Shown: positions 10,240-33,355 of the stretch, piece by piece
Numbering within the stretch: the stretch's first letter is position 1
Layout: every line of letters begins with the position of its first letter
From: Ideonella sp. A 288
GTDB lineage: Bacteria > Pseudomonadota > Gammaproteobacteria > Burkholderiales > Burkholderiaceae_C
DNA: 33,505 nucleotides
Direction of reading: 5' to 3'
Assembly: GCF_002198735.1 (NCBI RefSeq)
Contig: NZ_MWLO01000078.1
Coordinates: forward strand, 1 to 33,505
Notes under the pieces: model-generated
The model's database searches: none
Told to the model about the DNA's origin: nothing
What the model saw: only the letters and a program-made list of their open reading frames with translations
Program-made: the position numbers and the translations under genes

Positions 10240-10293
10240 TATGTTCGATGTCGCACAGACGCGGCAGGGGCGGCATGCGATCTTGCCCTGCCC

Positions 10294-10973: not shown

Positions 10974-10977
<4 letters not shown>
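10294..10977 (+). CDS. bphO: Biliverdin-producing heme oxygenase
   Basis: The 227-residue protein is a bacterial heme oxygenase of the BphO type. It cleaves heme to biliverdin, CO and Fe2+ and so supplies the chromophore for the phytochrome encoded next. The proximal heme ligand is probably His40 in RLKQATAARHAALES, and the distal-helix glycine motif is YVIEGATLGGQIVTRHL at about 136-152. An N-terminal extension of about 27 Pro/Ala-rich residues precedes the catalytic fold. ATG 10294 was chosen as the first start near the domain; no clear ribosome site is visible and an internal start is possible. The stop overlaps the bphP start (ATGA), so synthesis of enzyme and apo-phytochrome is coupled. 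Confidence 0.92.
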
Positions 10978-13325
<2,348 letters not shown>

Positions 13326-13327
13326 CC

Positions 13328-13750: not shown

Positions 13751-13771
13751 GCCTGAACCCGCGGCAACCCG

Positions 13772-15763
13772 ATGGCCCGACCCCACAGGCACGTGCTGCT
13801 GATCGACGACAGCGCCGACGATCGGGCCGATCTGCGGCAGATGCTGCTGTGCGGCGGCCACCGCCGGTTCCGCTTCAGCGAGGCCCAGCTGGGCGCCGAA
13901 GGCGTGCACCAGGTGCTCGAAGCGCCGCAGGGGCCCATCGACTGCGTGCTGCTGGACTACAGCCTGCCCGACATGGACGCCCCCGAGGTGCTGGCCGCCC
14001 TGTGCCAGGGGACCGACCTGCCGCCGTGCCCGGTGGTGGTGATCACCGGCACGGCCGGCGAAGACGGGCTGAAGCTGCTGGGGGCCGGCGCGCAGGACTA
14101 CATCGGCAAGCGCTGGACCACCGCCGAGAGCCTGACCCGCGCGGTCGACAACGCCATCGAACGCCACGCGATGATGGTCGATCGCCGGCGCGCCGAAGCG
14201 GCCCTGCGCTCGTCGGAGGAACGCTACCGGGCCCTGTTCAACTCGATCGACGCGGGCTTCGCCGTCATCGAGATGGTGTCGGACGGGCAGGGCGCGACCG
14301 TCGACGCGCGGTACCTGCAGGTCAACCCGGCCTTCGCCCGCCACACCGGCTTCGCCGACGTCGAGGGCCGGACCATCCGCGAGCTGTTGCCCGACATCGA
14401 CCCCCTGTGGCTCGAGGCCTACGACACGGTGGCCTCGACGGGCGAGCCGGTGCGGCTGGTGCATCGCATCGAATCGATGCAGCGCTGGTTGGACGTGTAC
14501 GCCTTCCGACTGGGCGCAGCGCAGGCGCGCCAGGTGGCGGTGCTGTTCAACGACATCACCGAGCGCAAGCAGTCCGAGCTGGCGCTCATCGCCGCCAAGG
14601 CCGAGGCCGAACGGGCCAACCGGGCGAAATCCGAGTTTCTGCTGAGCATGAGCCATGACCTGCGTTCGCCGCTGAACGCCATGCTCGGCTTTGCGCAACT
14701 CCTCGAGGCCGGCACGCCCGAGCCCACGCCGCAGCAGCTGGAAAGCGTCCAGCAGATCCTGCAGGCCGGCTGGCACCTGCTGGGCCTGATCAACGAGATC
14801 CTCGACCTGACGGCCATCGAGTCGGGCCAGCTGATGCTGTCGCCGCAGGCGGTGTCGCTGAGCGAGGTGATCGAGGAATGCCGGGCCATGATCGAGCCGC
14901 AGGCGCACGAGGCCGGCATCGACCTGCACTTCGTGCCGTGCGTCGATCAGCCCTGGCGGGTGCAGGCCGACGCCACGCGGACCCGTCAGGTGCTGCTGAA
15001 CCTGCTGAACAACGCGATCCAGTACAACCGCAGCGCCGGGCGTGTCGAGGTGCGTTGCACCGAGGCCCCTGGGCAGCGCGTGCGCGTGAGCGTCGAGGAC
15101 ACCGGCCCGGGGCTGTCGGCGGGGCAGGTGGCGCAGCTCTTCGAACCCTTCAGCCGGCTCGGCGAGCCCTGCGGCGGCCCGCCGGGCACCGGCATCGGCC
15201 TGGTCATCAGCCAGCGCCTGGTCGAGCTGATGGGCGGCTGCATCGGCGTGGACAGCACGGTCGGCGTGGGCAGCTGCTTCTGGTTCGAGCTGGACGCGGC
15301 GCCGACGCCGCTGGCGCGGGTGTGGCCGGCGCGCACGGTGCTGTGCCTCGAGAGCGATGCGCTGCGCCTGCAACGGATCGAGGAAGTGGTCGCCCGGTGG
15401 CCCGGCGTGTGCCTGCTGCGTGCAGGCGACCTGCGCGGCGGTATCGAGGTGGCGCGCTCGGCCCGCCCCGATGCGATCCTGATGGAGATTACCTCGCCGG
15501 ACCGCAGCGCCGTGCTGGCGATGCAGCAGTTCGCCAAAGACCCGGCCACGGCGCACATCCCGGTCATCGCGCTGGGGGCCGACGCCCTGCCGCGCGACGT
15601 CGAGGCCGGCCTGGCGGCGGGCTTCTTCGACTTCCTCACGCAGCCGGTGCTGAGCGACGCGTTCGAGCGCGCGCTAGGCCTGGCCTTCGAACGCACACGT
15701 GCGGGCGGGCAGCACGCCACCGCGGCCGCGGGCCCCGCGCCCCGACCGGCCCCGGCAGCCTGA
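13772..15763 (+). CDS. REC-PAS-histidine kinase-pseudoREC hybrid sensor
   Basis: The 663-residue cytoplasmic hybrid kinase has four parts. The N-terminal receiver carries Asp62 in VLLDYSLPD and Lys113 in YIGKRW. A PAS domain spans about 145-270 (RYRALFNSIDAGFAVIE ... NDITERK). HisKA has His295 in MSHDLRSPLNA. The HATPase has NLLNNAIQYN, DTGPGL and GTGIGL. A second receiver-like domain occupies about 520-645. In that last domain the phosphorylated Asp is replaced by Glu572 (ILMEITSPD) and the conserved Lys by Gln624 (FLTQPV), so it is probably not phosphorylatable. It lies 21 bp after the Rcp1-like gene and is likely co-expressed with bphO-bphP, making the N-terminal receiver a candidate acceptor of light-signal phosphate. 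Confidence 0.9.
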   Translation: MARPHRHVLLIDDSADDRADLRQMLLCGGHRRFRFSEAQLGAEGVHQVLEAPQGPIDCVLLDYSLPDMDAPEVLAALCQGTDLPPCPVVVITGTAGEDGLKLLGAGAQDYIGKRWTTAESLTRAVDNAIERHAMMVDRRRAEAALRSSEERYRALFNSIDAGFAVIEMVSDGQGATVDARYLQVNPAFARHTGFADVEGRTIRELLPDIDPLWLEAYDTVASTGEPVRLVHRIESMQRWLDVYAFRLGAAQARQVAVLFNDITERKQSELALIAAKAEAERANRAKSEFLLSMSHDLRSPLNAMLGFAQLLEAGTPEPTPQQLESVQQILQAGWHLLGLINEILDLTAIESGQLMLSPQAVSLSEVIEECRAMIEPQAHEAGIDLHFVPCVDQPWRVQADATRTRQVLLNLLNNAIQYNRSAGRVEVRCTEAPGQRVRVSVEDTGPGLSAGQVAQLFEPFSRLGEPCGGPPGTGIGLVISQRLVELMGGCIGVDSTVGVGSCFWFELDAAPTPLARVWPARTVLCLESDALRLQRIEEVVARWPGVCLLRAGDLRGGIEVARSARPDAILMEITSPDRSAVLAMQQFAKDPATAHIPVIALGADALPRDVEAGLAAGFFDFLTQPVLSDAFERALGLAFERTRAGGQHATAAAGPAPRPAPAA

Positions 15764-19316: not shown

Positions 19317-20177
19317 TCAGAAGTGGTACTCGGCCCGGATCATCGGCGTCTTGGCCGTGGCGCCCGAGCCGGCGGGGCCGCTGGCGTCGTTGCCGAACTT
19401 GTTCTTCCAGTACTGGTACTCCAGCCCCAGCTTGAAGGTGTTCTTGCCGGCGCCGAGCAGGCCGCTCATGTCGTACATCACCTGCATGTCGAGGTTGGTC
19501 TCGGGGGCGGTGCCGCCGCCGAACTCGTTGCGGCCCTTCGAGGCGATGTAGTTGAAGAAGCCCTCGAACGACAGCGGGATGCCGACGTTGAACGGGATGC
19601 CCCAGGCGGCCGTCAGCATCGCGTGCGTGTCGTAGCGGTAGCGCGGCGTGGCCACGCGACTGAAGGTGCTGTAGGGCGCGTTGCTCTCCCACAGCGCCAG
19701 CAGGCTCACGTTGAGGAAACCGGGCACGTCCAGCATCAGCGTGGGGCCGGCGACGAGCATGCGCTTCTTCGAGTTGTAGCCGGCGTCGGTCTTGGTGTTG
19801 AAGTCGAAGCCCGCGGTCAGGCCCATGCCGCGCACCGGGCCGAACTTGAAGCTGCCGCCGGTCGCCTTGCCCAGGTCGAGCGTGTGGCGGTAGACCACGT
19901 ACACCTCGTGCGCGCCGCTGGTGGCGCCGGCCGACGACGGGTCTTTCGAGTCCGACAGCAGCAGATCGGCATTGAAGAAGTTGCTGCCGTACTTGTAGCC
20001 GCTGGCGTGGTTGAGGTTGAGGATGTTCTTGCGGATGTCCTGCGGGTTGAAGGGCTCGGCGAAGGACGTGCCGAAGCGGTAGCCGATCGAGGTGTCGCTC
20101 CATTCGGCGGCATGGGTCGTCAGGCTGCAGGTGGCCACGGTGGCCAGCACGGCAAGGCGGCGAAGGGCGGGCATCAT
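19317..20177 (-). CDS. Tsx-like outer-membrane channel (outer envelope protein)
   Basis: The 286-residue protein has a signal peptide (RRLAVLATVATCSLTTHA, cut before AEW) and alternating beta-strand sequence of a small barrel. It ends in the aromatic ...RAEYHF typical of BAM-inserted proteins. Strand motifs such as ADLLLSDSKDP, EVYVVYRHTLDLGK and FKLGLEYQYWKNKFG match the nucleoside-specific channel Tsx family. GGAG precedes tandem ATG codons, so the start could be 20177 or 20174. It is divergent from the BMP-type transporter operon, whose family often imports nucleosides. It therefore probably gives the same substrate a path through the outer membrane. Function is inferred from family and context. 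Confidence 0.85.
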   Translation of the reverse strand: MMPALRRLAVLATVATCSLTTHAAEWSDTSIGYRFGTSFAEPFNPQDIRKNILNLNHASGYKYGSNFFNADLLLSDSKDPSSAGATSGAHEVYVVYRHTLDLGKATGGSFKFGPVRGMGLTAGFDFNTKTDAGYNSKKRMLVAGPTLMLDVPGFLNVSLLALWESNAPYSTFSRVATPRYRYDTHAMLTAAWGIPFNVGIPLSFEGFFNYIASKGRNEFGGGTAPETNLDMQVMYDMSGLLGAGKNTFKLGLEYQYWKNKFGNDASGPAGSGATAKTPMIRAEYHF

Positions 20178-20251
20178 CGGTGAACTCCAGTCGGTGTCGT
20201 GGGGGAAGGGGCGGGCGGGTCGCGCACGGGCTGGTGCGGCGCTCCCGGGAT

Positions 20252-20261
20252 CGGTATACCG
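20252..20261. promoter_or_regulatory. Candidate operator A (CGGTATACCG)
   Basis: A perfect 10-bp palindrome, CGGTATACCG, 74 bp upstream of the Tsx-like start codon. The GTATAC core fits the general GT-N-AC pattern of sites bound by FadR-subfamily GntR regulators. Such a regulator is encoded at the far end of the divergent operon. Confidence 0.45.
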
Positions 20262-20274
20262 GCTTGTCTACCGC
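20262..20274. promoter_or_regulatory. Candidate operator B, direct-repeat copy 1
   Basis: GCTTGTCTACCGC abuts operator A and matches operator C at 12 of 13 positions. Together A and B form a double site on the Tsx side of the control region. Confidence 0.4.
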
Positions 20275-20523
20275 ACATCCCGTGCCAGTGCGCTGCCCTC
20301 GGCGCACCGCGCCTGCGGCGTGCCGCGATGCGGCAGGAGATGGCCCCGGCGCGGCCGCTCGCCGCCGTCACCGGCGCTGGTCGTTCGCGGTGCACCGGCC
20401 TCCCCAAGCGAGTGCGCGCCGTGCGCGATCCGCACAGGCGGCGTGCACCGGACGGCCCTTCCGGCCCGCACCCAGGCCTGCTTCCCGGCGACTTCCAGAT
20501 CGCGTCGGGCTGGCCTGTCGATT

Positions 20524-20536
20524 GCTTGTATACCGC
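20524..20536. promoter_or_regulatory. Candidate operator C, direct-repeat copy 2
   Basis: GCTTGTATACCGC lies 75 bp upstream of the BMP binding-protein start and repeats operator B with one mismatch. It contains the same GTATAC core as operator A. Its location fits control of the operon promoter. Confidence 0.45.
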
Positions 20537-20611
20537 CTGGCACACCAACCGGTGTGGCGGCATCGGCCCACAGGCCGGCCGCATGTCTTCCCATCGAACA
20601 GGAGCGATGCA

Positions 20612-21718
20612 ATGAGCGGACCGCAGTGGAATCGTCGTGACGTGATCAAGGCCGCCGGCGGCCTGGCGGCGCTGGGGGCGGCCGGTGGGTCGTGGGCCCA
20701 GAAGCCCTTGTCCGTGGGCTTCATCTACGTGGGCCCGCGCGACGACTACGGCTACAACCAGGCGCATGCCGAGGCGGTGGCCCAGGCCAAGAAGATGCCG
20801 GGCCTGAAGGTCGTCGAGGAAGAGAACGTGCCCGAGACCAACGCGGTGCAGAAGACGATGCAGGGCATGATCGCGCAGGACGGCGCGACGCTGCTCTTTC
20901 CCACCTCGTTCGGCTACTTCGACCCGCACATCCTGGCCTTGGCGCCGAAGAACGCCAATGTGCGCTTCGCCCACTGCGGCGGCCTGTGGAACGAGGCCAA
21001 GCACCCGAAGAACGCCGGCAGCTTCTTCGGCTATATCGACGAGGCGCAGTACCTCAACGGCGTCGTCGCCGGCCACACCACCAAGAGCAAGAAGATCGGC
21101 TTCGTGGCGGCCAAGCCGATCCCGCAGGTGCTGCGCAACATCAATGCCTTCACGCTGGGCGCGCGTTCGGTGAACCCGGCGATCACCACCACCGTGATCT
21201 TCACCGGCGACTGGAGCATGCCGGTGAAGGAGGCCGAGGCCACCAACAGCCTGGCCGACCAGGGCATCGACGTGTTCACGATGCACGTGGACGGGCCCAA
21301 GGTCATCGTCGAGACAGCAGCCAAACGCGGCAAGTTCGTCTGCGGCTACCACGCCAGTCAAGCGAAGCTGGCGCCCCAGGCCTACCTCACCGGCGCCGAG
21401 TGGAACTGGCTCACCGCCTACAAGCAGATCATCGAGGCGGCCCAGACCGGCAAGCCGCACCCGAACTTCGTGCGCGGCGGCCTGAAGGACGGCTTCGTCA
21501 AGAGCAGCCCCTACGGCAGCGCCGTGAGCGAAGGCGCGCGCAAGCACGCCGACGAGGTGCGCGCCGCGATGATGAAGGGCGGCTTCGACATCTTCAAGGG
21601 CGAGTTGAAGGACAACACCGGCAAGGTGGTCATCGCCAAGGGCAAGGCCTTCAAGCAGACCGACCTCGAGCTCGAGGGCATGAACTACCTGATCGAGGGC
21701 GTGATCGGCAAGGTCTGA
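20612..21718 (+). CDS. BMP-family ABC transporter substrate-binding protein
   Basis: The 368-residue periplasmic protein is of the BMP/PnrA-like (Med) family, whose characterised members bind purine nucleosides. The N-terminus carries a twin-arginine signal (NRRDVIKAAGGLAALGAAGG), so export by Tat is likely. The mature start KPLSVGFIYVGPRDDYGYNQAH and the segments FGYIDEAQYLNGVVAG and KIGFVAAKPIPQV are family-typical. AGGAG precedes the ATG by 7 bases. It heads the operon with two matching permeases directly downstream; the matching ATPase lies 6.4 kb further on. In this setting the ligand may be a ureide- or triazine-like compound rather than a nucleoside, which is inference. Confidence 0.92.
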   Translation: MSGPQWNRRDVIKAAGGLAALGAAGGSWAQKPLSVGFIYVGPRDDYGYNQAHAEAVAQAKKMPGLKVVEEENVPETNAVQKTMQGMIAQDGATLLFPTSFGYFDPHILALAPKNANVRFAHCGGLWNEAKHPKNAGSFFGYIDEAQYLNGVVAGHTTKSKKIGFVAAKPIPQVLRNINAFTLGARSVNPAITTTVIFTGDWSMPVKEAEATNSLADQGIDVFTMHVDGPKVIVETAAKRGKFVCGYHASQAKLAPQAYLTGAEWNWLTAYKQIIEAAQTGKPHPNFVRGGLKDGFVKSSPYGSAVSEGARKHADEVRAAMMKGGFDIFKGELKDNTGKVVIAKGKAFKQTDLELEGMNYLIEGVIGKV

Positions 21719-21758
21719 TCGCCACAGCCCCAACGCCACCCTGCCACCGAGCCCCTCC

Positions 21759-22865
21759 ATGGCCGCTCCACGTGCATGGCATGCCAGCGCCGAAGCGCTG
21801 CTGCTGCCGCTGTTCGCGCTGACCGCGGCGCTGCTGCTGTTCGGCCTGTTCGTGTGGCTGGGCGGCGCCAGCCCGGTGGAGGCCTGGGTGCTGCTGTTCC
21901 GCGGCGCCTTCGGCGACGCGTTCTCGTGGCAGAACACGCTGCAGCGCGCGGCCCCGCTGATGCTCACGGCGCTGGCCGTGGCGCTGCCGGCGCGCGTCGG
22001 CCTCACGGTCATCGGCGGCGAGGGCGCGCTGGTGCTGGGCGCGCTGGCCGGCGCCGGCCTGCCCTACCTGATCCCCGTGCCTGGCGGCATGGTGGGCAGC
22101 ACGCTGGTGCTGCTGGCCGGCGCGGTGTTCGGCGCCGCCTGGGTGGCGCTGGCCGGCGTGCTGCGGCAGTGGCGCGGCGTCAACGAAACCATCTCCAGCC
22201 TGCTGCTGGGCTACATCGCGATCGCGCTGTTCAAGCACTTCGTCGAGGGGCCGATGCGCGACCCGGCGAGCCTGAACAAGCCCTCGACGCGGCCGCTGGA
22301 CGAATCGCTGCGCATCGGCGCCATCGCTCCGGAATCACTGCTCGGCGACGTGCACTGGGGCCTGGTCATCGGCCTGCTGCTGTGCGTGGCCACCGGCGCC
22401 TGGATGAGCTTCACCGCGCAGGGCTTCTCGCTGCGGGTGGTGGGCGGCAACGCCCGCACCGCGCGGCTGGTGGGCCTGCCCACGAACCGCCTGATCGTGC
22501 TGGCCTGCGCGCTGGGCGGGGCCTGCGCGGGCCTGGCCGGCGCGGTGGAGGTGGCGGCGGTGCACACCGCGGCCAATGCCTCGCTGATCGCCGGGCTGGG
22601 CTACACCGGCATCCTGGTCAGCTTTGTCGCCCGGCACAACCCCTGGGCCATCCCGCCGGTGGCGCTGCTGTTCGGCGGCTTCGCGGCGGCCGGCAGCCTG
22701 CTGCAGCGGCGGCTGGGCCTGCCCGATGCGTCGGTGCTGGTGCTGCAGGGCTTCGCCTTCGTCTTCATCCTGGCCGCCGAGGCGCTGCGCGGGCGGCTGT
22801 TCCAGCTGCAGCTGCCGCAGGCGCGGCTCAAGCTCGCCGCTACCGGCGGCAAGGCGGTGGCATGA
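21759..22865 (+). CDS. ABC transporter permease (BMP-associated), subunit 1
   Basis: The 368-residue inner-membrane permease is of the branched-chain/monosaccharide type (BPD_transp_2), with about 8-10 hydrophobic segments. Family landmarks are LTVIGGEGALVLGALAGAGLPY near residue 85, the cytoplasmic coupling sequence GVNETISSLLLGYIAIALFKHF, and VVGGNARTARLVGLPTNRLI at about 226-245. It pairs with the next permease as the heterodimer of a BMP-type uptake system. The ATG lies 40 bp after the binding-protein gene and has a weak ribosome site. Confidence 0.92.
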   Translation: MAAPRAWHASAEALLLPLFALTAALLLFGLFVWLGGASPVEAWVLLFRGAFGDAFSWQNTLQRAAPLMLTALAVALPARVGLTVIGGEGALVLGALAGAGLPYLIPVPGGMVGSTLVLLAGAVFGAAWVALAGVLRQWRGVNETISSLLLGYIAIALFKHFVEGPMRDPASLNKPSTRPLDESLRIGAIAPESLLGDVHWGLVIGLLLCVATGAWMSFTAQGFSLRVVGGNARTARLVGLPTNRLIVLACALGGACAGLAGAVEVAAVHTAANASLIAGLGYTGILVSFVARHNPWAIPPVALLFGGFAAAGSLLQRRLGLPDASVLVLQGFAFVFILAAEALRGRLFQLQLPQARLKLAATGGKAVA

Positions 22866-22887
22866 CGCACGCACGGAGCACCCCGCG

Positions 22888-23808
22888 ATGACCCTCGACG
22901 CCTGGCTCGACCTGCTGCTGGCCATCGTCGGCGGCGCCGTGCGCGTGGGCACGCCCTTCCTGTTCGTCAGCCTGGGCGAGTGCCTCACCGAAAAGAGCGG
23001 CCGCATCAACCTGGGCCTGGAAGGCGTGCTGGTGTTCAGCGCGATGGTCGGCTTCGGTGGCGCCTACCTCAGCGGCTCGCCCTGGCTGGGCGTGCTGCTG
23101 GCCGGCACCAGCGGCGCGCTGCTGGCGCTGCTGCACGGGCTGCTGTGCTCGCTGCCGCGCGTGTCCGACATCGCCACCGGCATCGCGCTGATGCTGCTGG
23201 GCTCGGGCCTGGCCTTCTACCTGGGCAAGCCGCTGATCCAGCCGCAGGCGCCGCAGATCCCGTCGCTGGCGTTGGGCGCGTGGAGCGATTCGCCCGCCGT
23301 GCAGCAAGCGCTGTCGGTCAATGCGCTGTTCCCGATCGGCGTGGCGCTGGCCGCGCTGCTGGCCTGGGGCTTCGCCAACACCCGCTTCGGCCTGGTGGTG
23401 CGCATGGCCGGCGATTCCAGCGACGCGGCGCGCGCGCTGGGCTACTCGGTCAACGGCGTGCGCATCGCCGCCACCACCGCCGGCGGCTTCATCGCCGGCC
23501 TGGGAGGCGCGTCGCTGTCGCTTTATTACCCGGGCAGCTGGAACGAGGGCTTGAGCAGCGGCCAGGGCCTGATCGCCGTGGCGCTGGTCATCTTCGCGCG
23601 CTGGCACCCGTGGCGCTGCCTGGGGGCGGCGCTGCTGTTCGGCGGCGCCGGCGCCATCGGCCCGGCGCTGCAGAGCGTGGGCGTCAGCGGCGGCTACTAC
23701 CTCTTCAATGCCGTGCCCTACGCACTGACGCTGGCGATCCTGGTGGCCACCTGCTCGCCGAAGCGATCGCTGAAGGGTGCACCGATGGAGCTGGGAGTCT
23801 CGAGATGA
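22888..23808 (+). CDS. ABC transporter permease (BMP-associated), subunit 2
   Basis: The 306-residue second permease of the BMP-type system has the usual opening FLFVSLGECLTEKSGRINLG, the coupling segment VSDIATGIALMLLGSGLAFYL, and VVRMAGDSSDAARALGYSVN before the last helices. GGAG sits 9 bases before the ATG. Its stop codon overlaps the start of the formamidase gene (ATGA), linking transport and catabolism at the translational level. Confidence 0.92.
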   Translation: MTLDAWLDLLLAIVGGAVRVGTPFLFVSLGECLTEKSGRINLGLEGVLVFSAMVGFGGAYLSGSPWLGVLLAGTSGALLALLHGLLCSLPRVSDIATGIALMLLGSGLAFYLGKPLIQPQAPQIPSLALGAWSDSPAVQQALSVNALFPIGVALAALLAWGFANTRFGLVVRMAGDSSDAARALGYSVNGVRIAATTAGGFIAGLGGASLSLYYPGSWNEGLSSGQGLIAVALVIFARWHPWRCLGAALLFGGAGAIGPALQSVGVSGGYYLFNAVPYALTLAILVATCSPKRSLKGAPMELGVSR

Positions 23809-24824
23809 GTGGATTGGGCGGATTGAACAAGTCGCCGAACGGTGTCGTCGTCGGGCTGGTGCAGTTGCAGCTGCCGGTGGTCGACACGCCGGCGCAACTG
23901 AAGGCGCAGGCCGAGCGCATCTGCTGGATGGTGGGCAAGGCGCGGCGCAACCTGGGCACGATGGACCTGGTCGTGTTCCCCGAGTACGCGCTGCACGGCC
24001 TGAGCATGAGCACCGCCGACGAGTTGATGGTCTCGCTCGACGGGCCGGAGGTGGCGTCGTTCAAGGCGGCGTGCGTGGCCCACCGGATCTGGGGCTGCTT
24101 CTCGATCATGGAGAAGAACCCCCACGGCAACCCCTACAACACCGGCCTGATCATCGATGACCAGGGCGCGATCAAGCTGTACTACCGCAAGCTGCACCCC
24201 TGGGTGCCGGTGGAGGCCTGGGAGCCCGGCAACATGGGCATCCCGGTGTGCGACGGGCCCAAGGGCAGCAAGCTCGGCCTGATCATCTGCCACGACGGCA
24301 TGTTCCCCGAGATGGCGCGCGAGGCCGCCTACAAGGGTGCCGAGATCATCCTGCGCACCGCCGGCTACACCGCGCCGATCCGCCACGCCTGGCAGATCAC
24401 CAACCAGAGCAACGCCTTCCAGAACCTGGCCTACACCGCCAGCGTGTGCCTGTGCGGCAGCGACGGCAGCTTCGACAGCATGGGCGAAGGCATGTTCTGC
24501 TCCTTCGACGGCACGGTGATGGTGAAGGGCGGCGGCCGCCCCGACGAGATCATCACCGCCGAGCTGCGGCCCGACCTGGTGCGCGAGGCGCGTGCCGGCT
24601 GGGGTGTCGAGAACAACCCCTACCAGCTCTGGCACCGCGGCTATGCGGCGGTGAAGGGCGGCGCGCAGGACTGCCCCTACACCTTCATGCACGACATGGT
24701 GGGCGGCCGCTACCGCCTGCCCTGGCACGCCAGCGTGCAGGTGACCGACGGCACCGGCTGCGGCTTTGCCGCCCCCGAGCGCCGCTACCGCGGCCCCGAA
24801 GCCAACCCCTTCGAGAAAGACTGA
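23805..24824 (+). CDS. amiF: Formamidase-type nitrilase-superfamily amidohydrolase
   Basis: The 339-residue cytoplasmic enzyme closely resembles AmiF formamidase (formamide to formate plus ammonia). The nitrilase triad is in place: Glu60 in VFPEYALHG, Lys129 in [10 protein letters not shown] and Cys162 in [10 protein letters not shown], against Glu60, Lys133 and Cys166 in Helicobacter AmiF. Length and the long conserved C-terminus ([30 protein letters not shown]) match the family. It overlaps the permease gene and lies 5 bp before biuH. In a biuret operon a formyl-amide such as N-formylbiuret or formylurea is an attractive substrate, though formamide itself cannot be excluded. That link is inference. 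Confidence 0.92.
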
Positions 24825-24829
24825 CCCCA

Positions 24830-25534
24830 ATGCCCACGATCCGCTCAGAGCCCTACGCGTGGCCCTATGACGGCGACCTCACGCCGCAGAACACCGCGCT
24901 GGTCATCATCGACATGCAGACCGACTTCTGCGGCATCGGCGGCTATGTCGACAAGATGGGCTACGACCTGTCGCTCACCCGCGCGCCGATCGAGCCGTTG
25001 AAGGCACTGCTGGCCGCCGCGCGGCGCGTGGGCCTGCACGTGATCCACACCCGCGAGGGCCACCGCCCCGACTTGGCCGACCTGCCGGCCAACAAGCGCT
25101 GGCGCTCGCGGCAGATGGGCGCGGGCATCGGCGACGCCGGCCCCTGCGGCCGCATCCTGGTGCGCGGCGAGCCGGGCTGGGACATCATCCCCGAGCTGTA
25201 CCCGATCGCCGGCGAGCCCATCATCGACAAGCCCGGCAAGGGCAGCTTCTGCGCGACAGACCTCGAGCTGATCCTGCACACCCGCGGCATCCGCAACCTG
25301 GTGCTCACCGGCATCACCACCGACGTGTGCGTGCACACCACCATGCGCGAGGCCAACGACCGCGGCTTCGAGTGCGTGATGCTCAGTGACTGCACCGGCG
25401 CCACCGACCGCGGCAACCACGAGGCCGCGCTGAAGATGATCCAGATGCAGGGTGGCGTGTTCGGCGCCGTGTCCACCTCCGGCGCCCTGATCGACCTGCT
25501 GCAGACCCTCCCCACGCACACCCCCAAGGATTGA
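24830..25534 (+). CDS. biuH: Biuret amidohydrolase (isochorismatase-like)
   Basis: The 234-residue cysteine hydrolase is of the isochorismatase-like fold. It matches Rhizobium leguminosarum BiuH along its whole length, as recalled: [39 protein letters not shown], and [17 protein letters not shown]. The triad is Asp28, Lys134 and Cys167, each exactly eight positions before the rhizobial Asp36, Lys142 and Cys175. The reaction is biuret to allophanate plus ammonia. ATG 24830 follows the amiF stop by 5 bp. The product is the substrate of the AtzF-type allophanate hydrolase encoded later in the same operon. Confidence 0.93.
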
Positions 25535-25536
25535 CC

Positions 25537-26520
25537 ATGAGCCGACACCTCACCCGCCGCCGCCTGATCCAGGCCGGCACCGCCGCCGCCGCACTGGTGG
25601 GCCTGCAGCGCAAGGCGCTGGCCGCCGACGACAAGATCCTGATCGGCTACTGGCCCATCGCCTCGGGCCTGCCGCTGTACGCAGGGCTGGAACGCGGCTT
25701 CTTCAAGGAGGCCGGCCTGCAGGTCGAGGGCGCCAAGTTCGCCAGCGCGCAGCAGGTGGCCGAGGCGATGATCTCCGGGCGCATCCACGGCTCGGGCAAC
25801 GGCACCGCATCGGCGGCGCTGGCGCTGGCCGAGATCACCAGCCCCAACCTCTTCAAGATCATCTGCAGCAACCCCAGCAACCGCAAGCTGGTGCTCGACC
25901 AGTTCGTGGTGCCGAAGGATTCGCCGATCAAGGCCATCGCCGAACTGGCGGGCAAGAAGGTGGCCTCGGGCCCCGGCATCCAGAACCTCACGCTGGCGCG
26001 GATGATCCTCGAGAAGAACGGCATCGCCAACCCGCAGGTCATCGAGCTGCCGGTGGGCCAGCACGTGCCGTCGCTGGCCGCCGGGCAGGTGGACGCCGTC
26101 TACACGCTCGAGCCCACCGGCACCGCCGGACGGCTGAAGGGCCTGACCCGCGTGCTCGAGAACGGCGTGATCGCCAAGTACATCCTCGGCGACCCCGACG
26201 CGCCCTGGTTCGGCGGCTCGGCCACCGTGACCACCGCCTTCCTGAAGGACAAGCCCGAGCTGGCCAAGAAGTACGTCGCCGCCTATGCCCGCTCGGTGGA
26301 CTGGGTGCGCAAGAACCCCGACGACGCGCGCAAGAGCCTGGACGGCTTCACCGCCATCGAGGAGTCGCTGGTGAAGGAGGTGCCGCTGGCCGGCTTCACG
26401 CTGTACAACGAGTTCAAGCCCTCCGACATCGACCACTTCCAGAAGTTCTTCGACGTCTTCACCGACCGCAAGATCTTCACCCGCCGGCTGGACGTGAAGT
26501 CGCTGCTGTACACCGGCTGA
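25537..26520 (+). CDS. NitT/TauT-family ABC substrate-binding protein
   Basis: The 327-residue periplasmic binding protein is of the SsuA/TauA/ThiY-like superfamily. The N-terminus has a Tat-type signal (TRRRLIQAGTAAAALVGLQ; cut after ALA near residue 28). The mature part shows YWPIASGLPLYAGLERGFFKEAGLQVE and LAGKKVASGPGIQNLTLARMI, the usual two-lobe pattern. AAGG precedes the ATG by about 7 bases, and only 2 bp separate it from biuH. The ligand is not readable from sequence; with permease and ATPase next to it and biuH upstream, a biuret- or urea-derivative is the best guess. Confidence 0.92.
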   Translation: MSRHLTRRRLIQAGTAAAALVGLQRKALAADDKILIGYWPIASGLPLYAGLERGFFKEAGLQVEGAKFASAQQVAEAMISGRIHGSGNGTASAALALAEITSPNLFKIICSNPSNRKLVLDQFVVPKDSPIKAIAELAGKKVASGPGIQNLTLARMILEKNGIANPQVIELPVGQHVPSLAAGQVDAVYTLEPTGTAGRLKGLTRVLENGVIAKYILGDPDAPWFGGSATVTTAFLKDKPELAKKYVAAYARSVDWVRKNPDDARKSLDGFTAIEESLVKEVPLAGFTLYNEFKPSDIDHFQKFFDVFTDRKIFTRRLDVKSLLYTG

Positions 26521-26525
26521 CGCGC

Positions 26526-27302
26526 GTGGACCGCCTGTTCGATCGCGTGAACGCCCGGCGCTGGCTGCCGCTGCTGGGGCCGCTGCTGCTGCTGGCGCTG
26601 TGGCAGCTGATGATCTCGGCGCACTGGGTGAAGGCCGTGCTGCTGCCGCCGCCGATGGACACGCTGGCCCACCTGGGCAGCGTGTTCGCCAGCGGCCACA
26701 TCCTGCCCGACCTGTGGGCCACGGTGTTCCGCACGCTGGCGTCCTTCGCCATCGCGGTGGCCATCGGCGTGCCGCTGGGCGTGGTGCTGGGCAGTTCGGA
26801 GGCCGCCTACCGCAGCGTCGAGTTCGTGATCGACTTCTTCCGCTCCACGCCCAGCTCGGCACTGATCCCGCTGTTCCTGCTGATCTTCGGCATCACCGAC
26901 GTCAACAAGATCGCCATCGCCAGCTTCGGCGCCATGCTGATCGTGCTGTTCAACAGCGCCTACGGCGTGATGAACGCCAAGAAGACCCGCGTGATGGCCG
27001 CGCAGATCATGGGCGTGTCGAAGTGGCACGTCTTCAAGGACGTGATGCTGATGGAAAGCCTGGCACAGACCTTCGTCGGCCTGCGCAGCGCGGTGAGCAT
27101 GGCGCTGGTGATCGTCATCGTGGCCGAGATGTTCATCGGCAGCGAGACCGGCCTGGGCCACCGCATCATCGACGCGCAGCAGGTGTTCAACGTCAAGGAG
27201 ATGTACTGCTCGATTCTGGTCACCGGCGCGCTGGGCTACCTGCTCAACCTGCTGTTCCTGCTGGGCGAGAAGAAGCTCATCCACTGGAGCGGCAAGGCAT
27301 GA
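26526..27302 (+). CDS. NitT/TauT-family ABC permease
   Basis: The 258-residue inner-membrane permease is of the SsuC/TauC type with six or so hydrophobic segments. The EAA-type coupling loop is AAQIMGVSKWHVFKDVMLMES at about residues 159-179, and IVIVAEMFIGSETGLGHRIID follows. Start is a GTG just 5 bp after the binding-protein gene. The stop overlaps the ATPase start (ATGA). It forms, with its neighbours, a complete three-gene transporter inserted inside the BMP transporter operon. Confidence 0.92.
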   Translation: MDRLFDRVNARRWLPLLGPLLLLALWQLMISAHWVKAVLLPPPMDTLAHLGSVFASGHILPDLWATVFRTLASFAIAVAIGVPLGVVLGSSEAAYRSVEFVIDFFRSTPSSALIPLFLLIFGITDVNKIAIASFGAMLIVLFNSAYGVMNAKKTRVMAAQIMGVSKWHVFKDVMLMESLAQTFVGLRSAVSMALVIVIVAEMFIGSETGLGHRIIDAQQVFNVKEMYCSILVTGALGYLLNLLFLLGEKKLIHWSGKA

Positions 27303-28125
27303 GCGCAGCTCTACCTGCCACCGTGCTGCCGCCCGCCATGGCGGACACAGTGCTCACGCTGCGGCCCGCGCCGGCCACGCACGTCACGGTGCGCGGCCTG
27401 TGCAAGAGTTTTGCCGGCGCGCCGCTGTACACCAACTTCAACCTCGACCTGCCGCGCGGCAAGATCGTCTCGATCTTCGGCCCCAACGGCTGCGGCAAGT
27501 CCACGCTGATGAACATGATCGCCGGGCTGGTGCCGCCCGATGCCGGCGAGATCCTGTTCGACGGCAAGACCCTGCGCGAGACGAAGATCGGCTACGTCTT
27601 CCAGAACTACCGCGACGCGCTGTTCCCCTGGCTCACCGCCTGGGACAACATCGCCTACCCGCTGAAGCGCCAGGGCATGAAACCGGCCGCGGTGAAGGCC
27701 CGCGTCGACGAGCTGGTGGCGCTGTTCGAGATCCGCTTCGACCTGGCGCGCTACCCCTACGAGCTGTCGGGCGGCCAGATGCAGACCGTGTGCATCATGC
27801 GCAGCCTGGCCACGCGGCCCGAGGTGCTGTTCCTCGACGAGCCGTTCTCGGCGCTGGACTTCGAGATGACGCTGTTCATCCGCGCCAAGCTGCAGGACGC
27901 CCACATGGCCACCGGCACCACGATGGTCATCGTCTCGCACGACCTGGAGGATGCCGTGTTCCTGGCCGACCGCATCCTGCTGCTCACACGCCGGCCCACG
28001 CGCATCGCCGAGATCGTGCCCTTCGACATGCCCCGCCCGCGCCTGCCCGAGGCGGTGGCCGAGCCCGACTTCGTGCGCGTCAAGGCGCACACGCTCGAGG
28101 TGTTCCGTCGCGAGGTGAATGCCCA

Positions 28126-28129
<4 letters not shown>
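27299..28129 (+). CDS. NitT/TauT-family ABC ATPase
   Basis: The 276-residue cytoplasmic ATPase is of the SsuB/TauB type. Walker A is GPNGCGKST, the Q-loop lies in GYVFQNYRDALFPWLTAWDN, the signature is LSGGQMQ, Walker B is VLFLDEPFSALD and the switch His is in IVSHDLEDAVF. An N-terminal extension of about 28 residues precedes the ABC fold. The ATG overlaps the permease stop, and its own stop overlaps the next ATPase start (ATGA). Confidence 0.94.
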
Positions 28130-29669
<1,540 letters not shown>

Positions 29670-29673
<4 letters not shown>

Positions 29674-30335
29674 ACGGTGTCGCTGCAAGTCCTTTCCTGT
29701 ACCGCTTCGACGTGGCCCGCACGGCGCTGGTCATCATCGACATGCAGCGTGATTTCGTCGAGCCCGGCGGCTTCGGCGCCAGCCTGGGCAACGACGTGAC
29801 GCGCCTGCAGGCCATCGTGCCCACGGTGCGCGAGGTGCTGCTGGCCTGGCGCGCGGCCGGCGGCCTGGTGGTGCACACCCGCGAGGCCCACGCCCCCGAC
29901 CTGTCCGACTGCCCCCCGGCCAAGCTGCAGCGCGGCAACCCCCACCTCCGCATCGGCGACGTGGGGCCGATGGGCCGCATCCTGGTGGCCGGCGAACCGG
30001 GCAACCAGATCGTGCCGGCGCTGGCCCCGGTGCCCGGCGAGATCGTCATCGACAAGCCGGGCAAGGGCGCCTTCTACGCCACCGGCCTGCACGAGATGCT
30101 GCAGGGCCGCGGCATCACCCACCTGGTGTTCATGGGCGTGACCACCGAGGTGTGCGTGCAGACCTCGATGCGCGAGGCCAACGACCGCGGCTACGACTGC
30201 CTGCTGGTCGAAGATGGCACCGAGAGCTACTTCCCCGAGTTCAAGGCCGCCACGCTGGCGATGATCACCGCCCAGGGCGCGATCGTCGGCTGGGTGGCGC
30301 CCGCCCACCACCTGATCGCGAGCCTCAGCCCATGA
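29670..30335 (+). CDS. Second isochorismatase-like hydrolase, candidate triuret hydrolase
   Basis: The 221-residue cysteine hydrolase is homologous to BiuH but clearly different. The triad is Asp24 (VIIDMQRDF), Lys129 ([10 protein letters not shown]) and Cys162 ([20 protein letters not shown]). It lacks the BiuH segment [13 protein letters not shown] and has [14 protein letters not shown] instead, and the C-terminus ([20 protein letters not shown]) differs in the substrate-facing part. In Herbaspirillum a related enzyme, TrtA, is known to hydrolyse triuret and so feed biuret to BiuH; this gene fits that role by context. RutB-like ureidoacrylate hydrolase is an alternative. AGGAG is 6 bases before the ATG, and both ends overlap neighbouring genes. 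Confidence 0.75.
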
Positions 30336-32209
30336 GCCCAGCCCGGCCGCCCGAAGGGGCGAATTCCCTGTCGGACGGACAGGTCCGAAGGTCCACGGCT
30401 GCCCCCGTGCCCCCTGCCCCGCCGCTGCACACCCTGGCCGACTGGCGCCGCGCCTATGCCGGCGGCGCCTCGCCGCTGGCGCTGCTGGGTGCGCTGCGCT
30501 CGCACCTGTCGGCCGACGACCCGGCCTGGATCCTGCGCGTCGACCGGTCCTTCATCGACGCGCAGGTGGCCCTGTTGCCGCCCGCCCCCACCGCCAGCAC
30601 CCCGCTGTGGGGCGTGCCTTTCGCGGTGAAGGACAACATCGACGTGGCGGGCCTGACCACCACCGCGGCCTGCCCGGCCTTCGCCTACACCGCCGAGCGA
30701 TCGGCCACCGTGGTGCAGCGGCTGCAGGCCGCCGGCGCGGTGCTGGTGGGCAAGACCAACCTCGACCAGTTCGCCACCGGGCTGGTGGGCACGCGCTCGC
30801 CCTACGGCGAGGTGCCCAACAGCTTCGACGGGGCGTATGTCAGCGGCGGCTCCAGTTCGGGCTCGGCCTCGGTCGTGGCGCGCGGCCTGGTGCCGTTGGC
30901 GCTGGGCACCGACACCGCCGGCTCGGGCCGCGTGCCGGCGGGGCTGAACAACCTGGTCGGCCTGAAGCCCACGCCGGGCCGGGTGCCAATGGCCGGCGTG
31001 GTGCCGGCCTGCCGCACGCTGGACGTGGTGTCGGTGTTCGCCCTCACCGTCGCCGATGCGGCGCAGGCCATGGCCATCATCGAAGGCGCCGGCGACGAGC
31101 CACAGTTCAACCAGCCCGTGCCGCAGGCGGGCTGGCTGGGTGGCCACCGCGTCGGGCTGCGGCTGGGCGTGCCGCAGCGGGCCGACTGCGATGCCGCGCT
31201 CGGCTGGGACCAGGCCTTCGACGCCGCGGGCGTGCGCGCGCAGGCGCTGGGGGCCGAGCTGGTGCCGGTGGACTTCACGCCGCTGTTCGAGGTCGCGCGG
31301 CTGCTGTACGACGGGCCCTGGGTGGCCGAGCGCTACACGGTGGTGCAGGCGCTGATGACGGCCCGGCCCGAGGCGATGGACGCCACCGTGCGCGAGATCA
31401 TCGCCGCCACCGGCCGCTTCAATGCCGGCGACGTGTACCGGGCGCAGTACCGACTGGCCGAGCTGCGCAGGCAGCTCGCGCCGCTGTGGCAACAGGTCGA
31501 TGCGTTGATGGTGCCCACCACGCCCACCTGCCCCACCCGCGCCGCGGTGTCGCGCTCGCCGCTGCTGCGCAACAGCGAGCTGGGCCGCTACACCAACTTC
31601 GTCAACCTGCTCGGCCTGGCCGCGCTGGCGCTGCCCTCGGCCGTGCCCGAGTCCGGCCTGCCCTTCGGCGTCACCTTCGTCGCGCCGGGCGGCAGCGACG
31701 CCGCGCTGGCCGACTGGGGCCTGCGCTGGGAGGCCGCCGGCCCGGCCACGCTGGGCGCCCGTCTGCGCCCCGCCCGCGACGGCGACCGCAACCCCGGCGG
31801 CTGGCCCGCCGCCGCCGCCACGCTGCCCTTGGCCGTGGTCGGCGCCCACCTCGAAGGCATGCCGCTGCATGGCCAGCTGGTCGAGCGCGGCGCCCGCCTG
31901 CTGGCACGCACCCGCACCGCCCCGGCCTACCGGTTGTTCGCGCTGCCCGGCACCGTGCCGCCCAAGCCCGGCCTGATGCGCGTGGCCGAGGGCGAGCCCG
32001 GCCACGCCATCGAGCTGGAACTGGTGGAAATGCCAATGGCCGCGGTCGGCAGCTTCCTGGCCCTGATCCCCGCTCCGCTGGGCCTGGGCACGGTGCAGCT
32101 GGAAGACGGCCGCTGGGTCAAGGGATTCATCTGCGAGCCGGCCGCACTGGCCGGTGCCACCGACATCAGCGCGCACGGCGGCTGGCGCGCCTACCTCGCG
32201 TCGCGATGA
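30332..32209 (+). CDS. atzF: Allophanate hydrolase
   Basis: The 625-residue amidase-signature enzyme converts allophanate to ammonia and CO2, the last step of biuret and cyanurate breakdown. The Ser-cisSer-Lys triad is Lys100 ([11 protein letters not shown]), Ser174 (GGSSSGSA) and Ser198 ([11 protein letters not shown]), each nine positions after the AtzF residues Lys91, Ser165 and Ser189. A C-terminal domain typical of allophanate hydrolases follows from about 490 ([30 protein letters not shown]; ADISxHGGWR-like end), which separates it from AtzE and other plain amidases. About 45 Pro/Ala-rich residues precede the fold, so a later start is possible. ATG 30332 overlaps the preceding stop. No urea carboxylase is present. 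Confidence 0.95.
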
Positions 32210-32616
32210 CGCCGGCCGACATCGACCGCCCCAGCGTCGTCGCCGAGGTGCGGCGCCAGTTCGACGCCTACGAGCGGGCCCTGATGGGCAACGACGTCGA
32301 GGGACTGATCGGCTTCTTCTGGCCGGACGCCCGCCTCACGCGTTATGGCATTGCCGACCGGCAGCTGGGCATCGCCGAGATGGTGGCCTTCCGCCGCGCC
32401 ACGCCGGCGCCCGGCTTCACCCGGCGACTGGAGAACCTGCGCATCACCGCCTTCGGCGACGACATGGCCGTGGCGCTGGTGGAGTTCGTGCGCAGCGACA
32501 CGCCGCTGCGCGGCTTCCAGAGCCAGACCTGGGTGCGCATGGACAGCGCGGACAGCGGTCCCGCCGTCTGGAAGATCGTCTCGGCGCACGTGAGCATGTT
32601 CGACTTCGCGGGCTGA
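32206..32616 (+). CDS. AtzH/HpxZ-like NTF2-fold protein
   Basis: The 136-residue protein has an NTF2-like cone fold pattern: VVAEVRRQFDAYERALMGND, LIGFFWPDARLTRYGIADRQLG, then strands ending SQTWVRMDSADSGPAVWKIV and SAHVSMF. It resembles the AtzH-like/DUF3225 family, found with cyanurate (AtzH) and oxalurate (HpxZ) catabolic amidases. The precise role of these proteins is unsettled. The ATG overlaps the atzF stop. Its presence supports assignment of the operon to s-triazine/ureide nitrogen metabolism. AtzE and AtzG, its usual companions, are absent. Confidence 0.85.
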   Translation: MTPADIDRPSVVAEVRRQFDAYERALMGNDVEGLIGFFWPDARLTRYGIADRQLGIAEMVAFRRATPAPGFTRRLENLRITAFGDDMAVALVEFVRSDTPLRGFQSQTWVRMDSADSGPAVWKIVSAHVSMFDFAG

Positions 32617-32644
32617 CGCTCCGGCTGCGTATCATTCCGCCCAC

Positions 32645-33355
32645 ATGCCCTCGCACCGACTGCCCCCCGTGATCGTCGCTGCGGCCACCGCCGGGCCGGT
32701 GACCCTGGCCGACCAGGCCTACGCGGCGGTCAAGCAGATGATCTTCGACTTCGCCCTGATGCCCGGCGACCGCTTCAGCGAGAGCGAACTGGCCCAGCGC
32801 GTCTCGGTCAGCCGCACCCCGCTGCGGCAGGCGCTGCAGCGGCTCGAACGCGAGGGCTTCCTGGCGGTGATGCCGAAGATCGGCTGGCAGGTGGCACCGC
32901 TCGACTTCGACACCTTCGACGAGCTGTACGACCTGCGCATCCTGATCGAATGCCACGCCGCGCAGCAACTGGCCACCGCCGAGCCCCGCACGCCGCTGCG
33001 CGCGCTGGCCGACGTGTGGCTGGTGCCGGCGGCCGAGCGCGTCACCGACGGCACCGCCGTCGGCGCACTCGACGAGCAGTTCCACGCCCAACTGGTGCTG
33101 GCCGGCGGCAACCGCGAGATGTCGCGCGTGCACCGCGAGATCACCGAGCGCATCCGCATCATCCGCCGGCTCGACTTCACCAAGCCGGCGCGCGTGGAAG
33201 CCACCTACGACGAGCACGCCCGCATCGTGCGCGCCATCGCCCGCCGCCGCGCCGACGAGGCCGCGCGGCTGCTGCGCGCCCACATCGAGCAAAGCAAGCT
33301 CGAGGTGCGGCACATCACGCTGGACATGCTGCACCGCGCGCGGCAGCGGGCTTGA
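32645..33355 (+). CDS. GntR-family regulator with FCD domain
   Basis: The 236-residue FadR-subfamily regulator has an N-terminal winged helix (AYAAVKQMIFDFALMPGDR; LAQRVSVSRTPLRQALQRLE at about 50-70) and an all-helical FCD effector domain. Candidate metal or ligand residues are Asp and His in LDEQFHAQLV, His in YDEHARIV and His in LRAHIEQSK. It starts 28 bp after the AtzH-like gene and is probably co-transcribed with the operon. GTATAC-like sites in the 20.2-20.5 kb control region are its most likely operators. The effector is probably a pathway intermediate. The start at 32645 has no strong ribosome site. Confidence 0.92.
   Translation: MPSHRLPPVIVAAATAGPVTLADQAYAAVKQMIFDFALMPGDRFSESELAQRVSVSRTPLRQALQRLEREGFLAVMPKIGWQVAPLDFDTFDELYDLRILIECHAAQQLATAEPRTPLRALADVWLVPAAERVTDGTAVGALDEQFHAQLVLAGGNREMSRVHREITERIRIIRRLDFTKPARVEATYDEHARIVRAIARRRADEAARLLRAHIEQSKLEVRHITLDMLHRARQRA

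What the first reader, a model, noticed from the sequence alone, without database searches (positions are those of the whole stretch)
19317..33355. Complete uptake-and-hydrolysis cluster for biuret-type nitrogen compounds
One operon combines BiuH, a second isochorismatase-like hydrolase, AtzF, an AtzH-like protein and an AmiF-like amidase with two full ABC transporters and a GntR regulator, plus a divergent Tsx-like channel. BiuH and AtzF keep all catalytic residues, so biuret to allophanate to ammonia/CO2 is well supported. What precedes biuret, and what is imported, is unknown. The combination with formamidase and a BMP/Tsx import route is not one I know as described.
Basis: partly seen in the sequence, partly recalled or inferred. 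Interest (0 to 1): 0.85.

Follow-up and report, generated by a model that had tools for sequence, protein, structure and literature searches.

The report
Triuret-and-biuret nitrogen operon with a formamidase
This stretch of a bacterial genome carries an operon that very probably imports triuret and biuret (by-products of uric-acid oxidation and urea fertiliser) and breaks them down to ammonia; the core is already described, but a tightly linked formamidase and a re-tuned decarboxylase point to an unfinished part of the pathway.

Summary
In detail: thirteen genes on one strand (20612-33355) plus a divergent Tsx-like porin. The "second isochorismatase-like hydrolase" is triuret hydrolase TrtA (nearest solved protein: Herbaspirillum TrtA; all tested TrtA-discriminating residues kept), so what precedes biuret is most likely triuret. 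TrtA-BiuH-AtzF operons, also with a BMP-type ABC importer, are in print (PMC7948467, PMC12625717): a known kind.

Three points go beyond what I found in print. (1) AmiF formamidase sits between permease 2 and BiuH in 55 of 59 AmiF-bearing TrtA loci; in 299 genomes of the family 38 of 39 close AmiF copies lie in this operon. (2) The AtzH-like protein stands without AtzE, its usual partner; across 103 classed loci its pocket residue Arg66 is kept where AtzE is present (70 of 70) and never otherwise (0 of 33). I infer that it decarboxylates carboxybiuret. (3) The binding protein resembles AtzT but with a nearly fixed altered pocket.

Mechanism: triuret -> carboxybiuret -> biuret -> allophanate -> ammonia + CO2. 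The formamidase's role is open; my boldest reading is a parallel "formyl-capped" route (formylbiuret -> formylurea -> formamide). Nothing was tested by experiment.

The parts
19317..20177 (-). Tsx-like 12-strand outer-membrane porin, divergent; occasional neighbour rather than core
   Evidence: AlphaFold model, mean pLDDT 90; best PDB fold match Tsx 1TLW E 1e-7, TM 0.56/0.63; no Pfam/PDB sequence hit
20254..20259 (.). GTATAC palindrome, candidate GntR operator (distal)
   Evidence: one of only two GTATAC in the window; likeness to GntR operators is recalled
20528..20533 (.). GTATAC in TTGTATAC, candidate GntR operator 84 bases before the BMP gene
   Evidence: GTATAC in 33 of 113 upstream regions against 0.014 per 500 bases over the loci
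20612..21718 (+). BMP-family periplasmic binding protein, AtzT-like with altered pocket (Gln/His/Asp)
   Evidence: PF02608; nearest structure AtzT 6PI5 E 1e-64; pocket survey
21759..22865 (+). ABC permease 1 (BPD_transp_2)
22888..23808 (+). ABC permease 2 (BPD_transp_2)
23805..24824 (+). AmiF-type formamidase, E60/K129/C162
   Evidence: NF009803 551 bits against cut-off 406; PDB 5G3O, 2DYU formamidases; residues (their role is recalled); operon-locked
24830..25534 (+). BiuH, biuret amidohydrolase
   Evidence: NF050097 422 bits against 370; PDB 6AZO E 2e-120; BiuH-type residues
25537..26520 (+). NMT1/SsuA-type ABC binding protein (ligand unknown)
   Evidence: PF09084, TIGR01728 below cut-off
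26526..27302 (+). ABC permease of the NMT1-type transporter (start uncertain)
   Evidence: sequence; homologues at the same place; no family scan
27299..28129 (+). ABC ATPase of the NMT1-type transporter
   Evidence: sequence; order BiuH-SBP-permease-ATPase-BMP ATPase in 16 of 150 loci; no family scan
28126..29673 (+). BMP-type ABC ATPase (two ABC domains)
   Evidence: PF00005, two stretches
29670..30335 (+). TrtA, triuret hydrolase
   Evidence: PDB 6XIX E 9e-96; catalytic and discriminating residues; BiuH model below cut-off, 247 of 370 bits
30332..32209 (+). AtzF, allophanate hydrolase with AH_C domain, K100/S174/S198
   Evidence: TIGR02713 740 bits against 511; PF21986; residues
32206..32616 (+). 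AtzH-like protein of the AtzE-free type, proposed carboxybiuret decarboxylase
   Evidence: PF11533 E 2e-37; Tyr22, Arg46 kept, residue 66 Thr; no AtzE over cut-off in the genome
32645..33355 (+). GntR/FCD-family regulator
   Evidence: PF00392, PF07729

Best explanation
A triuret/biuret nitrogen-utilisation operon. A BMP-type ABC importer (perhaps fed by the Tsx-like porin) brings in a flat ureide, most likely triuret and/or biuret. TrtA removes one terminal amide: triuret -> NH3 + 1-carboxybiuret. The AtzH-like protein, working without AtzE, decarboxylates carboxybiuret to biuret. BiuH: biuret -> NH3 + allophanate. AtzF: allophanate -> 2 NH3 + 2 CO2. A GntR regulator, probably binding GTATAC sites before the BMP gene, controls it. 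The formamidase releases NH3 and formate from formamide that arises from, or is imported with, related ureides. Shown by sequence: enzyme families, active-site residues, operon conservation. Inferred: every substrate in this organism, the AtzH-like reaction, the regulation, the formamidase's role.
For: TrtA: nearest solved protein is the characterised Herbaspirillum triuret hydrolase, E 9e-96, against 8e-62 for the best BiuH; it has D24, K129, C162, Q202 and the TrtA-type F35, N41, A134, E160, Y187, I205, while the first hydrolase carries BiuH-type Y, Y, S, D, T, V there (residue roles from PMC7948467, Results and first part of Discussion read). BiuH and AtzF pass curated cut-offs. 150 distinct TrtA loci; of the 115 with enough flank (the window itself is not among these): BiuH 107, BMP ABC ATPase 104, AtzH 94, GntR 94, AtzF 60 within the fetched stretch. 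BMP binding proteins of these clusters keep AtzT's aromatic sandwich (Trp 118 of 118 rows, Tyr 110) but have Gln (114), His (118), Asp (118) for Glu165, Asn218, Asn220 (window counted twice; positions matched through the alignment). AtzH-like: Arg66 in 70 of 70 rows with AtzE and 0 of 33 without; AtzE over its cut-off in 0 of 19 AtzE-free genomes tested and 6 of 6 controls.
Against: No growth, transport or enzyme data for this organism. In Pseudomonas ADP, Arg66Ala/Lys were not among the AtzH variants with significantly lowered effect (PMC6219798, section read), so Arg66 is not essential for the dicarboxyurea step in vitro. Arg66 and AtzE change only about four times on the tree, too few for a significance test, and one clade for all AtzE-free rows is not rejected (p-AU 0.16). 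Weaker AtzE-like amidases exist in AtzE-free genomes (13 sub-cut-off matches in the window's), some close to the cluster on the other strand (32-35% identity). Carboxybiuret also decarboxylates by itself (half-life about 20 min, PMC7948467). Nine of 115 full loci have neither AtzH, AtzE nor the cupin. The ligand of neither ABC transporter can be read from sequence.
Confidence: 0.85

Rival explanations
1. Formyl-capped ureide route (may coexist with the main reading): besides triuret, the operon degrades formylbiuret and formylurea (for example from 5-azauracil or from oxidised nucleobases). TrtA and BiuH cleave the terminal amide; the N-formylcarbamate left from formylurea loses CO2 to give formamide, which AmiF turns into formate and ammonia.
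For: AmiF stands between permease 2 and BiuH in 55 of 59 loci and, among close copies in this family, almost nowhere else (38 of 39 in the operon); TrtA's best non-triuret substrate is formylurea (0.3% of triuret activity; PMC7948467 Table 2). The chemistry of the chain and the natural sources are recalled or inferred; two paper searches for support found nothing of use.
Against: TrtA's formylurea activity is low; BiuH's was not found; 91 of 150 TrtA loci show no AmiF in the fetched stretch; no ring-opening enzyme for an azapyrimidine in the cluster.
Confidence: 0.25
2. AmiF is an independent formamide-scavenging gene that merely shares a regulator and a nitrogen-starvation role with triuret degradation (concerns the formamidase only).
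For: AmiF passes the formamidase equivalog model and keeps the catalytic residues; many clusters lack it, so it is dispensable for triuret.
Against: A general scavenger should often stand alone; 38 of 39 close copies in 299 genomes stand in this operon.
Confidence: 0.45
3. The AtzH-like protein still acts on 1,3-dicarboxyurea as in Pseudomonas ADP, supplied by another amidase (concerns this step only).
For: Tyr22, Arg46 and Arg63 are invariant in 105 of 105 rows; sub-cut-off AtzE-like amidases exist in the genome.
Against: No AtzE over cut-off in the genome; Arg66 lost in every classed AtzE-free row.
Confidence: 0.15
4. The cluster serves mainly purine or s-triazine import (guanine, hydroxy-triazines) and ureide hydrolysis is secondary.
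For: Nearest binding-protein structure is AtzT, which binds guanine at 0.11 uM (PMC6834077, passages); the porin folds like Tsx.
Against: Three of AtzT's ligand-bonding residues are replaced in a nearly fixed way in TrtA clusters; no AtzD found in the genome (the same search rings in 25 of 399 genomes of the order); no purine enzyme in the operon.
Confidence: 0.1

Closest known systems
trtA-biuH-atzF triuret operon of Herbaspirillum sp. BH-1 and Rhizobium leguminosarum 3841 (PMC7948467; abstract, Results, first part of Discussion, section on biological relevance and passages seen)
   Same: TrtA, BiuH and AtzF together; triuret -> carboxybiuret -> biuret -> allophanate -> ammonia
   Different: The window adds AmiF, a second (NMT1-type) ABC transporter and a Tsx-like neighbour; whether BH-1 or 3841 have them is not said in the text I saw
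Triuret gene contigs of ammonia oxidisers and comammox Nitrospira (PMC12625717; passages seen)
   Same: atzF, biuH, putative trtA, putative trtB (AOB only), bmpA-nupABC on one contig; gntR among the genes of its Fig. 6 legend
   Different: 'formamidase' and 'NMT1' do not occur in its main text; allFGHK joins in comammox
atzDGEHF cyanuric acid operon of Pseudomonas sp. ADP (PMC6219798; passages and one section seen)
   Same: AtzF and an AtzH-family protein acting after carboxybiuret
   Different: No AtzD and no AtzE over cut-off here; carboxybiuret is proposed to go through biuret, not dicarboxyurea
AtzT, periplasmic binding protein (PMC6834077; passages seen)
   Same: BMP-family protein, aromatic sandwich around a flat ligand
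   Different: Glu165, Asn218, Asn220 become Gln, His, Asp in nearly all TrtA clusters surveyed
AmiF formamidase (PDB 2DYU, 2E2K, 5G3O)
   Same: Same family; catalytic Glu/Lys/Cys aligned
   Different: Sits in the triuret operon

Membership tests
TrtA triuret hydrolase | Catalytic D24, K129, C162 and Q202 | tested here: met
   same numbering in the window protein
TrtA triuret hydrolase | TrtA-type residues F35, N41, A134, E160, Y187, I205 where BiuH has Y, Y, S, D, T, V | tested here: met
TrtA triuret hydrolase | Activity on triuret, almost none on biuret | not testable with these tools
   needs enzyme assay
BiuH biuret hydrolase (NF050097) | Score over the curated cut-off of 370 bits | tested here: met
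   24830-25534: 422 bits; 29670-30335: 247 bits, not met, as expected for TrtA
AtzF allophanate hydrolase (TIGR02713) | Score over cut-off, amidase Lys/Ser/Ser and AH_C domain | tested here: met
   740 bits against 511, PF21986, residues (triad recalled)
AmiF formamidase (NF009803) | Score over cut-off; Glu-Lys-Cys triad | tested here: met
   551 bits against 406; E60, K129, C162 (triad recalled)
AtzH / HpxZ (1,3-dicarboxyurea decarboxylase type) | Genomic partner AtzE | tested here: not met
   0 matches over the AtzE cut-off in the own genome, 13 below it
AtzH / HpxZ (1,3-dicarboxyurea decarboxylase type) | HpxZ equivalog cut-off 135 bits | tested here: not met
   128.7 bits; the wider PF11533 AtzH-like is met
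AtzH / HpxZ (1,3-dicarboxyurea decarboxylase type) | Tyr22 and Arg46; Arg66 in the docked pocket | tested here: inconclusive
   Tyr22, Arg46 met; residue 66 is Thr
TrtB carboxybiuret decarboxylase | Sequence relation to characterised Herbaspirillum TrtB | not tested
   TrtB's sequence and family are not given in the texts I saw; an AtzH-like gene with Cys66 follows trtA in Herbaspirillum frisingense L191
Cyanuric acid pathway | AtzD | tested here: not met
   0 in own genome (whose controls did not ring); same search finds 25 of 399 genomes of the order
Tsx nucleoside channel | 12-strand barrel of Tsx fold | tested here: met
   (TM 0.56/0.63); sequence family models not met
Tsx nucleoside channel | Nucleoside transport | not testable with these tools
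   needs transport assay

The most novel reading that the evidence does not exclude
The operon degrades a whole series of oxidised or fragmented nucleobase ureides: the amino-capped series triuret -> biuret -> allophanate and, in parallel, a formyl-capped series formylbiuret -> formylurea -> formamide -> formate, finished by AmiF. The AtzH fold has been turned, with loss of a pocket arginine whenever AtzE is absent, into a carboxybiuret decarboxylase.
Probability: 0.25. Interest if true: 0.65.

Novelty: new variant of a known kind. Interest (0 to 1): 0.45.

Why it matters
Triuret hydrolase is so specific that a natural substrate flux is suspected but its source is unknown. A formamidase locked into the same operon suggests that the natural substrate mixture, or a side route, yields formamide, which narrows the search. 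The AtzE/Arg66 rule, if it holds, predicts from sequence alone which of two routes (deaminating or decarboxylating) a bacterium uses after carboxybiuret, an intermediate shared with herbicide and cyanuric acid breakdown.

Tried and rejected
Cyanuric acid as source: no AtzD found in the genome. AtzD loci as a way to learn what TrtB is: among 30 short loci (2.2-4.1 kb) and 13 longer ones none showed an AtzE-free AtzH; L238 has AtzH with AtzE. L054 (G020), already held, has AtzD, TrtA and an AtzE-free AtzH (Leu66) in one cluster. RutB: its model falls far below cut-off for both hydrolases. GuuH: no model seen here, not tested. AmiF linked to the NMT1 transporter or to AtzE: no association (Fisher p 0.45 and 0.44); a negative association with AtzF in the fetched stretch (p 0.009) was not followed. 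Tsx as core gene: rejected, 2 of 150 loci. Correction made on the way: searches counted L086 as AtzE-bearing; the hit was the amidase core of its AtzF, and one search replaces them. Rows dropped: L077 (G058) from the neighbourhood counts, because its only isochorismatase-like gene scored higher as BiuH; L177 (Gln66) and L178 (Arg66) from the AtzE/Arg66 test, because AtzH lies at a contig edge; L173 was kept as AtzE-bearing on a partial AtzE at the edge. 'Without AtzE' means none of 45% identity or more in the fetched stretch.
Full report
What is there. The window (one whole contig, 33,505 bases, of a 7.0 Mb genome) ends in a thirteen-gene stretch on the + strand, 20612-33355, with a divergent porin gene at 19317-20177. 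Six neighbouring pairs overlap by four bases. The genus is probably Aquabacterium or near it: G227, of the same genus as the window's genome, has its TrtA hit on a 747,161-base contig at the same place as the named contig of Aquabacterium terrae found.

The two isochorismatase-like hydrolases. The first (24830-25534) is BiuH: 422 bits against a cut-off of 370, nearest structure R. leguminosarum BiuH. The second (29670-30335) is TrtA: nearest structure 6XIX, Herbaspirillum triuret hydrolase, E 9e-96, against 8e-62 for Rhodococcus BiuH and 3e-54 for R. leguminosarum BiuH. PMC7948467 lists residues that separate the two enzymes; at F35, N41, A134, E160, Y187 and I205 the second hydrolase is TrtA-type and the first BiuH-type, and both keep the Asp, Lys, Cys and the shared Gln. 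That paper states that Herbaspirillum BH-1 and R. leguminosarum 3841 have operons with TrtA, BiuH and AtzF.

How common. TrtA-type matches (59-100% identity) occur in 79 of 299 genomes of the family, the window's included (counted). With the window that is 164 loci; 163 gave a TrtA (L077 did not) and 150 are distinct. Of the 115 with more than 7.4 kb before and 4.5 kb after the TrtA start (the window is not among them): BiuH 107, BMP-type ABC ATPase 104, AtzH 94, GntR 94, AtzE 69, AtzF 60, NMT1-type transporter 56, AmiF 48, a cupin 7. Record titles include Burkholderiales, Rhizobiales, Rhodobacteraceae and Nitrospira. The NMT1-type transporter lies between BiuH and the BMP ATPase, as here, in 16 of 150; in 42 cases its ATPase lies before AtzE. 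The window's complete order of thirteen is found in 4 of 150 loci (window, L121, L136, L149); the same order without AmiF in 7, without the NMT1 transporter in 3, without either in 5.

The formamidase. AmiF stands between permease 2 and BiuH in 55 of 59 loci. In the 299 family genomes there are 39 AmiF copies of 75% identity or more, in 38 genomes (two further matches are 40% identical). Of the 39, 35 lie within 6.6 kb of a TrtA and three more lie beside BiuH at contig ends or in a second copy (G041, G068, G005); G275 is the exception, with neither in 14 kb. TrtA is present in 35 of 38 genomes with AmiF and in 44 of 261 without (Fisher p 3e-20, not corrected for kinship). The window's genome has one other, weak match (26% identity). 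The order permease-formamidase-BiuH is also on plasmids of Pseudomonas luteola and Klebsiella pneumoniae. The sequence says formamidase. Why a triuret operon should need one is the open question. A chain that fits: TrtA's second-best tested substrate is formylurea (PMC7948467, Table 2); loss of its terminal amide would leave N-formylcarbamate, which should lose CO2 to give formamide (my inference). Formylbiuret is to triuret what formylurea is to biuret. Two paper searches for natural sources found nothing of use.

The AtzH-like protein. In Pseudomonas ADP, AtzH follows AtzE and is thought to decarboxylate 1,3-dicarboxyurea, docked in an arginine-rich pocket with Tyr22 and Arg46 as key residues and Arg66 among the contacts; Arg66 variants were not significantly impaired (PMC6219798). 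Here no AtzE passes its cut-off. In 105 AtzH-like proteins from the 150 loci, Tyr22, Arg46 and Arg63 are invariant. Of 103 that can be classed, Arg66 is present in 70 of 70 with AtzE in the fetched stretch and in 0 of 33 without; window residue 104 is Arg in all 70 AtzE-linked rows and Phe in 21, Arg in 9, Leu or Tyr in 3 of the 33 others (L086 moved). At genome level AtzE passes its cut-off in 0 of 19 AtzE-free genomes that I tested, the window's included, and in 6 of 6 controls. On a tree without the trait columns both traits need four changes; in the quick tree L054, L059, L085, L144 and L153, which have Leu66 and no AtzE, lie inside the AtzE-linked clade. With so few independent changes no significance can be claimed (1 pair on well-supported branches, 4 on all), and the careful tree does not reject one clade for all AtzE-free rows (p-AU 0.16). 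Distant AtzE-like amidases (32-35% identity) lie on the other strand near three of those five clusters and near some AtzE-bearing ones too. Reading: with AtzE the substrate has two carboxylates; without it, one (carboxybiuret). In Herbaspirillum frisingense (L191) the gene directly after trtA is an AtzH-like protein with Cys66, followed by gntR, so TrtB, the reported carboxybiuret decarboxylase, may be of this type; I could not confirm TrtB's family from the texts seen. In seven full loci, six of Rhizobiales and one of Rhodobacteraceae, a cupin follows TrtA and no AtzH or AtzE is present, a possible third solution.

Import and regulation. The BMP binding protein's nearest structure is AtzT, which binds guanine and 2-hydroxyatrazine (PMC6834077). 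The aromatic sandwich and Ser97/Phe98 are largely kept, but Glu165, Asn218 and Asn220 are Gln, His and Asp in 114, 118 and 118 of 118 rows of 48% identity or more (window counted twice; 9 more distant rows differ). A flat ureide is a fair guess, untested. The porin folds like Tsx, but a relative is found in only 22 of 150 family genomes and near TrtA in few. GTATAC occurs in 33 of 113 regions before the BMP gene against an average of 0.014 per 500 bases, and in the window only at two places, both in the divergent promoter region; 80 of 113 lack it, so it is no general signal.

Verdict. New, as far as the held library shows (searches; open-licence papers only), are the operon-locked formamidase, the AtzE/Arg66 rule and the altered binding pocket.

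Noticed in passing
L265 (Klebsiella pneumoniae plasmid NZ_CP023489.1, 68081-86740): An AtzF-BMP-permeases-formamidase-BiuH-ATPase-TrtA-GntR operon lies on a conjugative IncFII plasmid between an IS1 and an IS1/IS26 element; close formamidases are also listed on Enterobacter and Citrobacter plasmids.
   Followed up: partly
L264 (Escherichia coli plasmid NZ_CP026494.1, 70507-87148): A TrtA-like hydrolase (59% identical, all tested TrtA residues kept) with no second such place in the record, followed by genes annotated DUF2877, fdrA, DUF1116, carbamate kinase and cytosine permease; 78 Escherichia plasmid records match TrtA at E 1e-40 or better.
   Followed up: partly
L077 (G058), 11465-12139: A cluster BMP-permeases-hydrolase-AtzF-AtzH-GntR with a single isochorismatase-like enzyme about equally like TrtA (64%) and BiuH (63%), perhaps a generalist or intermediate.
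   Followed up: no
L034 10662-11015 and L032 10659-10991: A small cupin protein (Cupin_7 match tested for L034) takes the AtzH place after TrtA in Rhizobium and Agrobacterium plasmids; candidate alternative carboxybiuret decarboxylase.
   Followed up: partly
L054 (G020) 2805-14000: AtzD joins the triuret cluster with AmiF and an AtzE-free AtzH (Leu66): cyanuric acid and triuret routes merged.
   Followed up: no
window 10647-15763: A bacteriophytochrome-type sensor kinase (PAS_2-GAF-PHY-HisKA) followed by a response-regulator/PAS/histidine-kinase hybrid.
   Followed up: no
window 6649-7536 (+) and 8299-9237 (-): Two transglutaminase-like proteins close together on opposite strands.
   Followed up: no
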